Origin: an uncultured Bacilli bacterium
Lineage (GTDB): Bacteria; Bacillota_I; Bacilli_A; RFN20; CAG-826
Assembly (NCBI GenBank): GCA_944363565.1
Contig: CALVUI010000001.1
Coordinates: 124,001-188,000 of the forward strand
Length of the DNA stretch: 64,000 nucleotides
Reading direction: 5' to 3'
Shown here: in pieces, positions 15,486 to 23,555 of the stretch
How the letters are laid out: each line of letters opens with the position of its first letter
How positions within the stretch are numbered: position 1 is the first letter of the stretch
Translations under genes and position numbers: made by a program
Notes under the pieces: generated by a model
What the model was told of the DNA's origin: nothing
Seen by the model: the letters and a program-made list of their open reading frames with translations, nothing else
The model's database searches: none

Positions 15486-15515
15486 TTGCAATCAGATCAG
15501 CGTTTGGGGTATATT
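15486..15515 (+). promoter_or_regulatory. Promoter of the initiator tRNA gene
   Basis: TTGCAA (15486-15491), 18 nt, TATATT (15510-15515); transcription would begin about 20 nt before the mature tRNA 5' end. It is the only good promoter in this stretch. Confidence 0.65.
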
Positions 15516-15542: not shown

Positions 15543-15617
15543 CGCGGGGTAGAGCAGTGGTAGCTCGTCAGGCCCATAACCTGAAGGCCGGTGGTTCAAG
15601 TCCATCCCCCGCAACCA
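15543..15617 (+). tRNA. tRNA-fMet (CAT), initiator, variant anticodon arm
   Basis: Folds as a cloverleaf with encoded CCA. C1 opposes A72 (5' CGCGGGG, 3' CCCCGCA-ACCA), the unpaired first position that marks bacterial initiators. The anticodon arm is TCAGG-CCCATAA-CCTGA: position 33 is C, not the near-universal T, and the first of the usual three stacked G-C pairs is A29-T41. It stands alone between a promoter and a terminator. Confidence 0.95.
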
Positions 15618-15626
15618 AGTACACCG

Positions 15627-15649
15627 CGCCGGTCCGCCCGGCGTTTTTT
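15627..15649 (+). terminator. Terminator of the initiator tRNA unit
   Basis: Stem CGCCGG/CCGGCG with loop TCCGC and six T, starting 10 nt after the tRNA CCA end. Confidence 0.85.
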
Positions 15650-15781
15650 CTTGCCCGATCAAGCCCAATCGTCTTTCAAGGGATAGACCAGGGGCCGGAT
15701 TCCCATTTTATTTCACGCCGTCAACAAACCATCGGAAGGAAACGGGTCTCGGTCGTCATCCCTGCTCTTACATGCATAAGG

Positions 15782-22655: not shown

Positions 22656-23555
22656 ATGAAAGGCATCATCCTGGCCGGCGGTAGCGGCACCCGCCTCTAC
22701 CCCCTGACCTTGGTTTCGAGCAAGCAGCTCCTACCCGTCTACGACAAACCCCTCATCTACTACCCTTTGACGACCCTGATTTCGGCCGGGATCAAGGACA
22801 TCCTCGTCATCTCCACCCCCCAGGATACCCCGCGGATCGAAAGCCTTTTGGGGGATGGGAGGAACTACGGGGTCAAGCTCCAATATCTGGCCCAGCCTGC
22901 TCCAGAGGGGATCGCCCAGGCCTTCATTTTGGGCCAGTCCTTCATCGGTGACGACGAAGTGGCCTTGATTCTCGGGGACAACCTCTTCTACGGGGGAGGA
23001 CTAAGGTCCCAATTAAAGGAAGCCGCCAAAGAGGCAAGGGAAGGGAAGGCCACCTTCTTTGCCTACTTCGTCAAGGATCCCGAACGCTTCGGGACCATCG
23101 CCATCGATGAACAAGGCCAACTATCCGGGATCAGGGAAAAGGATCCCCATCCTTCTACTTCCTACGCGGTCACCGGGCTTTATTTCTATCCCTCGGGTGT
23201 TAGTGCCAAGGCCAAAGGGCTGAAAAAATCCCCGCGCGGCGAGTATGAAATCAGCGACCTCAACAATCTCTACATCGAAAAGAAACAAGCGGTGGTTCGA
23301 GTCTTGGGCCGCGGCTATACCTGGCTTGACTGCGGAACCCCCGATAGCCTCAAGGAAGCCGCCGACTTCGTCCACAGCGTCCAAAGCCACGAAGGCCTCT
23401 ACATCGGCTGCCCCGAAGAAGCGGCCTACCGCGAAGGCTATATCGGGAAGGATATTCTCATCGAAAGGGCCGAGGCCCTATCGCACTGCGCCTATGGCCG
23501 TTACCTCAAGGCTTTGACCGAGGCCACCTACCTCCAGGAAGGGAGGATCGTCTGA
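22656..23555 (+). CDS. rfbA: Glucose-1-phosphate thymidylyltransferase
   Basis: A 299-aa nucleotidyltransferase making dTDP-glucose from glucose-1-phosphate and dTTP, the first step of dTDP-L-rhamnose synthesis. The N-terminus carries the signature GGSGTRLYPLTLVSSKQLLPVYDKP, and LILGDNLFYGGG provides the metal-binding Asp; length is normal. TAGAAT ends 6 nt before the ATG with no Shine-Dalgarno, so the operon mRNA appears leaderless. Its last base is shared with the next ATG. Confidence 0.95.
   Translation: MKGIILAGGSGTRLYPLTLVSSKQLLPVYDKPLIYYPLTTLISAGIKDILVISTPQDTPRIESLLGDGRNYGVKLQYLAQPAPEGIAQAFILGQSFIGDDEVALILGDNLFYGGGLRSQLKEAAKEAREGKATFFAYFVKDPERFGTIAIDEQGQLSGIREKDPHPSTSYAVTGLYFYPSGVSAKAKGLKKSPRGEYEISDLNNLYIEKKQAVVRVLGRGYTWLDCGTPDSLKEAADFVHSVQSHEGLYIGCPEEAAYREGYIGKDILIERAEALSHCAYGRYLKALTEATYLQEGRIV

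What the first reader, a model, noticed from the sequence alone, without database searches (positions are those of the whole stretch)
15543..15617. Initiator tRNA with C33 and an A29-U41 pair in place of the three-G-C signature
C1-A72 proves initiator identity, yet the anticodon stem has A-U/G-C/G-C and the loop has C33. Three stacked G-C pairs and U33 are nearly universal in bacteria; altered stems are reported for some mycoplasmas, and C33 is typical of eukaryotic initiators. This could relate to the leaderless mRNAs, which depend on initiator tRNA and 70S ribosomes.
Basis: partly seen in the sequence, partly recalled or inferred. Interest (0 to 1): 0.65.

Follow-up and report, generated by a model that had tools for sequence, protein, structure and literature searches.

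The report
Clade-wide unconventional bacterial initiator tRNA
The only start-of-protein tRNA gene found in this gut-type bacterium lacks two features usually called nearly universal, but its relatives share the same changes and the ribosome parts that grip it look normal, so it is most likely a working, inherited variant of a known kind.

Summary
At 15543-15617(+) lies an initiator tRNA (C1xA72, A11-U24) with stem A29-U41/G30-C40/G31-C39 and C33. It is the only initiator found in the 1.26 Mb assembly; the other 45 tRNAs have U33. It is no sequencing error: all 30 same-genus genomes read have A29 and C33. The family shows G29/U33, G29/C33, A29/C33 and, rarely, A29/U33. Neither change is unique: C33 recurs in Weissella/Leuconostoc, Patescibacteria, Elusimicrobia and Phycisphaerae; 33 of 57 Patescibacteria tRNAs lack G29-C41; mycoplasmas have altered stems. 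The predicted compensation was not found: 16S P-site residues, anti-SD, uS9 and uS13 tails and IF3 R/K131 are ordinary; IF3 position 129 changed in this genus and its sister, but not in step with the tRNA. No leaderless link emerged: ribosomal-protein genes carry strong Shine-Dalgarno sites in every tRNA state. A29 and C33 co-occur in the family (64 of 67 A29 rows), but on a tree the dependence is weak (p 0.03-0.22 by model) and it is absent in Patescibacteria. Best reading: a functional, clade-fixed, probably near-neutral unconventional initiator.

The parts
15543..15617 (+). initiator tRNA-fMet gene (CAU), sole copy found in the assembly, CCA encoded
   Evidence: ARAGORN; Rfam RF00005 61.4 bits; one match in own genome
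15568..15584 (+). anticodon arm: stem TCAGG/CCTGA (A29=15570 pairs U41=15582; G30-C40, G31-C39), loop CCCATAA with C33=15574
   Evidence: sequence; parsed (AS5 TCAGG, loop CCCATAA, AS3 CCTGA)
15552..15566 (+). D arm GAGC/GCTC with A11-U24, an initiator hallmark
   Evidence: sequence
15486..15515 (+). promoter-like TTGCAA-18-TATATT (9 of 12)
   Evidence: shuffles mean 0.4 sd 0.8, so weak
15626..15651 (+). intrinsic terminator: GC-rich hairpin followed by a T run
   Evidence: shuffles mean 0.3 sd 0.5

Best explanation
This is the working and, as far as the assembly shows, only initiator tRNA of the organism. It is an unconventional AU/GC/GC type with a C33 anticodon loop, fixed in its genus by descent. 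SHOWN: clade-wide conservation; intermediate states in the family; an otherwise intact initiator (C1xA72, G2-C71, C3-G70, A11-U24), with fmt present; canonical 16S P-site residues, anti-SD, uS9 and uS13 tails; IF3 131 still R/K. INFERRED: the P site still grips the stem because A1339 reads the retained G30-C40 pair, while G1338 contacts position 41 mainly through its 2'-OH and so tolerates U41 in place of C41; C33 still allows the anticodon-loop turn, as in animal initiators. Both changes are then near-neutral or mildly relaxing, and no compensating change in the 30S subunit is needed.
For: Genus-wide A29-U41/C33. A family series G29/U33 (25), G29/C33 (24), A29/C33 (64), A29/U33 (3) of 116 tRNA rows, with several changes and back-changes on a 78-genome tree. 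The 29-41 pair stays complementary: A-T in every fully read A29 tRNA. 16S G1338, A1339, A790, G966, C1400 and the CCTCC tail are canonical in 17 of 17 genomes read, 8 of them A29/C33. IF3 131 is R (50) or K (23) in 73 genomes. uS13 tails are ordinary in 78 genomes. uS9 ends in SKR in the 15 of 16 genomes whose tail my parser found. fmt is found in 19 of 19. U33 is kept in the 45 other tRNAs of the genome, so the change is specific to the initiator. Published structure: G1338 bonds the 2'-OH of nucleotide 41 (PMC11497404, passages). C33 is known in eukaryotic initiators (PMC9023262, passages).
Against: No expression, aminoacylation or initiation data. Naked-RNA folding slightly prefers an alternative to the cloverleaf (-28.1 against -27.6 kcal/mol); canonical relatives show similar gaps (e.g. 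G077, G043), so this is weak. Published work reports impaired growth of E. coli with an AU/GC/GU initiator (PMC10568206, passage), so stem changes need not be neutral. IF3 position 129 has changed in this genus and its sister genus and could be a compensation I cannot exclude. Of 22 genomes re-searched with up to 3 mismatches, 16 still gave no initiator; they may hold other variants.
Confidence: 0.8

Rival explanations
1. C33 is a permissive or compensating change: a C33 loop makes loss of G29-C41 tolerable (or the other way round), so the two evolve together.
For: In the family 64 of 67 A29 tRNA rows have C33 (raw Fisher p 5e-9). The ML rate of A29 gain is about tenfold higher on C33 than on U33 background in the gain-only model. 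G29/C33 is common and A29/U33 rare, as if C33 came first.
Against: On the tree the tests are weak: gain-only p 0.07-0.10; A-dependent p 0.18-0.22; C-dependent-on-A p 0.03-0.06; full model p 0.06-0.13 (0.12). The full model even put A29 gain on U33 instead when the root was fixed at G29/U33. Independent pairs are uninformative. No association in Patescibacteria (non-G29 in 4 of 7 C33 and 29 of 50 U33 rows; p 1.0). Rhizobia and mycoplasmas have A29 with U33 (recalled).
Confidence: 0.12
2. The tRNA has co-adapted with a changed initiation machinery, as reported for mycoplasmas (IF3, rRNA, uS9, uS13).
For: IF3 in this genus and its sister genus (19 of 19 rows) has V, I or Y at E. coli R129 and a W in place of the usual M/L before the [ED]G[RK] motif. 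Mycoplasma precedent (PMC10568206, passages).
Against: The IF3 change also occurs in sister-genus members with G29 (G482, G521) and is absent from other A29/C33 genera (g210, g24, g30, g216), so it follows descent, not tRNA state. 16S, uS9, uS13 and IF3 131 are unchanged.
Confidence: 0.1
3. The variant initiator is an adaptation to leaderless mRNAs.
For: TATAAT-like hexamers begin at -13 to -11 in 4 of 42 ATG-first ORFs of this genome and nowhere from -60 to -14. Leaderless genes and unconventional initiators coexist in M. pneumoniae (PMC10568206, passages).
Against: Strong Shine-Dalgarno sites precede ribosomal-protein genes in this genome (18 of 20 at or below -6 kcal/mol) and equally in all initiator states. 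The -10 signal does not clearly follow tRNA state among genera, though those loci are few and operon-biased.
Confidence: 0.04
4. Assembly or sequencing artefact, or a pseudogene beside a missing canonical copy.
For: Draft assembly of 9 contigs, 95.25% complete.
Against: 75/75 identity in another genome and the same changes in 30 of 30 genus genomes read; intact stems, terminator and CCA.
Confidence: 0.02

Closest known systems
Unconventional mycoplasma and rhizobial initiator tRNAs (AU/GC/GC, AU/GC/GU)
   Same: G29-C41 replaced by A29-U41 while the C1xA72 formylation signature stays; small genome
   Different: C33 here; none of the reported 16S, uS9, uS13 or IF3 R131 compensations found. M. 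pneumoniae details are from passages of PMC10568206; the rhizobial case is recalled, and the primary papers were not held or not read
Eukaryotic initiator tRNA-Met(i)
   Same: C33 in place of U33 (PMC9023262, passages)
   Different: No A1-U72 and no A54; this tRNA has C1xA72, T54 and bacterial A11-U24. Resemblance at one base only
C33 initiators of other bacteria (Weissella, Leuconostoc, Convivina, Saccharibacteria, Falkowbacteria, Elusimicrobia, Phycisphaerae)
   Same: Loop CCCATAA in an initiator D/anticodon arm, found here by pattern scan; many also lack G29-C41
   Different: Unrelated lineages; the Lactobacillales and Phycisphaerae ones seen keep G29-C41, the Saccharibacteria ones have U29-A41
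E. coli tRNA-fMet with the M1 change (C30-G40)
   Same: A change within the three G-C pairs that meet A1339/G1338 (PMC11497404, passages)
   Different: M1 hits 30-40, the type I A-minor pair; here 30-40 is intact and only 29-41 changes

Membership tests
bacterial initiator tRNA (general) | unpaired or weak 1-72 (C1xA72) | tested here: met
   sequence; 5 of 28 genus loci have U1-G72 instead
bacterial initiator tRNA (general) | G2-C71, C3-G70 and A11-U24 formylation elements | tested here: met
   sequence; elements named in PMC7949028 passage
bacterial initiator tRNA (general) | CAU anticodon; distinct from the elongator | tested here: met
   (separate elongator tRNA-Met with TTCATAC loop)
bacterial initiator tRNA (general) | formyltransferase present in genome | tested here: met
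   TIGR00460 238.8 bits, cut-off 201.5
canonical 3GC initiator tRNA | G29-C41, G30-C40, G31-C39 | tested here: not met
   A29-U41; the other two kept
canonical 3GC initiator tRNA | U33 | tested here: not met
   C33; 45 of 46 tRNAs of the genome have U33
mycoplasma-type co-adapted unconventional initiation | altered 3GC stem | tested here: met
   AU/GC/GC
mycoplasma-type co-adapted unconventional initiation | altered 16S P-site residues | tested here: not met
   G1338, A1339, A790, G966, C1400 kept in 17 of 17
mycoplasma-type co-adapted unconventional initiation | altered IF3 R131 (residue recalled) | tested here: not met
   R or K in 73 of 73; R129 changed throughout this genus and its sister genus
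mycoplasma-type co-adapted unconventional initiation | altered uS9/uS13 tails | tested here: not met
   uS13; uS9 SKR in own genome and 14 others
eukaryotic-type initiator | A1-U72 and A54 | tested here: not met
   C1/A72 and T54
working initiator | charged, formylated, binds P site, initiates | not testable with these tools
   needs biochemistry

The most novel reading that the evidence does not exclude
Position 33 and pair 29-41 form a linked tuning module of bacterial initiator tRNAs. A U33-to-C33 change, like that of animal initiators, arises first and makes the P site indifferent to the first of the three G-C pairs, so the '3GC rule' can be dropped without any ribosomal compensation. This would have happened several times in one family of gut-type Bacilli and in other phyla.
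Probability: 0.1. Interest if true: 0.55.

Novelty: new variant of a known kind. Interest (0 to 1): 0.35.

Why it matters
Reviews call the three G-C pairs highly conserved in all domains of life (PMC7949028, passage). Here one bacterial family, with sequenced relatives in several states and ordinary ribosomal P-site parts, shows that both the first G-C pair and U33 can change repeatedly. That makes it a natural series for asking whether 30-40 alone carries the initiator signal, and it argues against the idea that such changes always need mycoplasma-like compensation.

Tried and rejected
Second initiator copy: none found. One family member, G475, seemed to carry two initiators; the second (contig C24) has a flank 95.9% identical over 1036 nt to genome G457 of another genus, so I treat it as bin contamination and dropped it from the later tree test; it is still counted among the 64 A29/C33 rows. 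Coupling of 33 with 29-41: strong in raw family counts, weak on the tree, absent in Patescibacteria. 16S, uS9, uS13 and IF3 compensation: not found, apart from the lineage-specific IF3 129 change. Leaderless link: not supported; a crude Shine-Dalgarno test on first-start ORFs gave little contrast (mean -4.0 against -3.6 kcal/mol), which I put down to poor start choice, because ribosomal-protein starts gave a clear signal. Eukaryote-like initiator: rejected on A1-U72 and A54.

Limits of the counts: the search pattern demands a GAGC..AGCT D arm, so initiators without it are missed: 110 of 394 Bacilli, 31 of 146 family and 89 of 145 Patescibacteria genomes had no match. The listing was truncated; the 150 visible rows (132 genomes) were parsed. 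Of 117 rows, 116 were typed in (an identical second G502 row dropped). The 16S of G022 resembles that of another genus (G097) and may be mis-binned; it was kept in the 17.

Full report
Observation. The tRNA at 15543-15617(+) is real. It has the initiator hallmarks C1xA72, G2-C71, C3-G70 and A11-U24, an encoded CCA, a terminator and a weak promoter match. In the whole assembly (1,258,617 bases, 9 contigs, 95.25% complete) there are 46 tRNAs; only this one is an initiator, and residue 33 is U in the other 45.

Relatives. In the same genus group, 31 of 37 genomes gave a match. Twenty-eight were fetched and parsed and all have A29-U41 and C33; two more were read at 29 and 33 (G027, G015) and agree; one (G025) was not read. 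Two of these genomes coincide in contig place with named records: G029 with OX437086 (uncultured Firmicutes bacterium) and G020 with CADCLU010000008 (uncultured Erysipelotrichaceae bacterium RUG14765). So the lineage belongs to uncultured Bacilli-type bacteria (inference). In the family, 115 of 146 genomes matched; 116 tRNA rows split into A29/C33 64, G29/U33 25, G29/C33 24, A29/U33 3. One of the A29/C33 rows, from G475, was later judged contamination. Among the five order-level outgroups used in the tree, four have G29/U33 (G043, G046, G052, G056) and one G29/C33 (G038).

Tree. Twenty-one ribosomal-operon proteins from 78 genomes gave a tree with 57 of 75 inner branches starred. Parsimony needs 7 changes at position 29 and 10 at position 33 for 73 genomes. 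Position 29 differs within genera g23, g24, g25, g30 and g219, and position 33 within g25, so both changes recur or reverse. Pagel-type tests with 77 scored tips: A29 gain dependent on C33 p 0.07-0.10; A29 rates dependent on C33 p 0.18-0.22; C33 rates dependent on A29 p 0.03-0.06; full dependence p 0.06-0.13, by root assumption (an earlier run with fewer scored tips gave 0.12). The raw association (Fisher p 5e-9) is therefore largely shared descent, with a hint left over.

Other bacteria. The 80 loci shown hold 82 tRNAs: 29-41 is A-T in 45, G-C in 30, T-A in 7. They come from Weissella, Leuconostoc, Convivina, Fructilactobacillus, Saccharibacteria, Falkowbacteria and other Patescibacteria, Elusimicrobia, Omnitrophota, Victivallales, Phycisphaerae and several Bacilli. 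In a class sample, 150 visible rows were G29/U33 143, G29/C33 4, A29/U33 3. In a Patescibacteria sample, 57 rows were G29/U33 21, A29/U33 17, U29/U33 12, A29/C33 4, G29/C33 3, with no association of C33 with loss of G29 (p 1.0). So both features are uncommon in Bacilli as a whole but not rare in bacteria at large.

Ribosome and factors. In 17 genomes with a full 16S rRNA (8 A29/C33, 8 G29/C33, 1 G29/U33), G1338, A1339, A790, G966, C1400 and the CCTCC anti-SD are canonical in all (numbered on E. coli rrsB). IF3 position 131 is R in 50 and K in 23 of 73 genomes. In this genus (10 rows) and its sister genus g23 (9 rows), E. coli R129 is V, I or Y; two g23 genomes with this IF3 have G29, and other A29/C33 genera keep a basic residue in nearly all rows, so the change tracks descent. 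uS13 tails are ordinary in 78 genomes and uS9 ends in SKR in the 15 of 16 the parser resolved, own genome included. fmt is present in 19 of 19.

Leaderless mRNAs. In ribosomal-protein genes of this genome, 18 of 20 starts have a duplex energy to the anti-SD at or below -6 kcal/mol (mean -8.8; control -2.9), and the four initiator states give means of -9.2 to -9.6. TATAAT-like hexamers start at -13 to -11 in 4 of 42 ATG-first ORFs of this genome, which hints at some leaderless genes, but the genera compared do not separate by tRNA state (sparse data).

Mechanism. A published structure shows that A1339 and G1338 make A-minor contacts with pairs 30-40 and 29-41, and that G1338 bonds the 2'-OH of nucleotide 41 (PMC11497404, passages). 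A sugar contact can survive U41, and pair 30-40 is intact here; this is inference. C33 in place of U33 is seen in eukaryotic initiators (PMC9023262, passages). M. pneumoniae has an AU/GC/GU initiator with reported compensations in rRNA, uS9, uS13 and IF3 (PMC10568206, passages); none of the tested ones is seen here.

Literature. Ten searches of an open-licence library, read as listings plus passages of seven papers, showed no description of C33 in bacterial initiators. Two key primary papers (PNAS 2012, NAR 2017) were not held and the RNA Biology 2018 paper was not read, so absence from print is not established.

Verdict. A real, clade-fixed, functional-looking unconventional initiator: a new variant of a known kind, of moderate interest chiefly as a natural evolutionary series.

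Noticed in passing
L011:6665-6741 (G000 contig C4): AUA is read by a tRNA-Ile with a UAU anticodon; the genome has only two CAU tRNAs, so no lysidine-type tRNA-Ile2(CAU) was found, while outgroups G043, G046 and G056 carry a third CAU tRNA that looks like one. Absence of tilS was not tested.
   Followed up: partly
L351 (IF3 gene, G000:C1:223214-223465): IF3 C-domain of this genus and its sister genus has V/I/Y at E. coli R129 and a W before the [ED]G[RK] motif, and lower Pfam scores than most other genera.
   Followed up: partly
L026, L034, L035, L044, L045, L195: Initiators with U1-G72 instead of C1xA72, in the same genus and in G097.
   Followed up: no
L396 (G015): Same-genus initiator with D-stem GGGC/GCCT, so G11-C24 replaces the A11-U24 initiator pair.
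   Followed up: no
L394 (G445) and L395 (G447): Initiators in which G31-C39 has become G31-U39, further eroding the three G-C pairs.
   Followed up: no
Patescibacteria sample: 33 of 57 initiator rows lack G29-C41 (A29 or U29), so the three-G-C rule is weak in that phylum.
   Followed up: partly
window and other G000 DNA, e.g. ORF starts near 22656(+) and 62405(-): TATAAT-like boxes ending a few bases before the ATG, suggestive of leaderless genes.
   Followed up: partly
G475 contig C24 (L402): Bin contamination: flank 95.9% identical over 1036 nt to G457 of another genus.
   Followed up: yes
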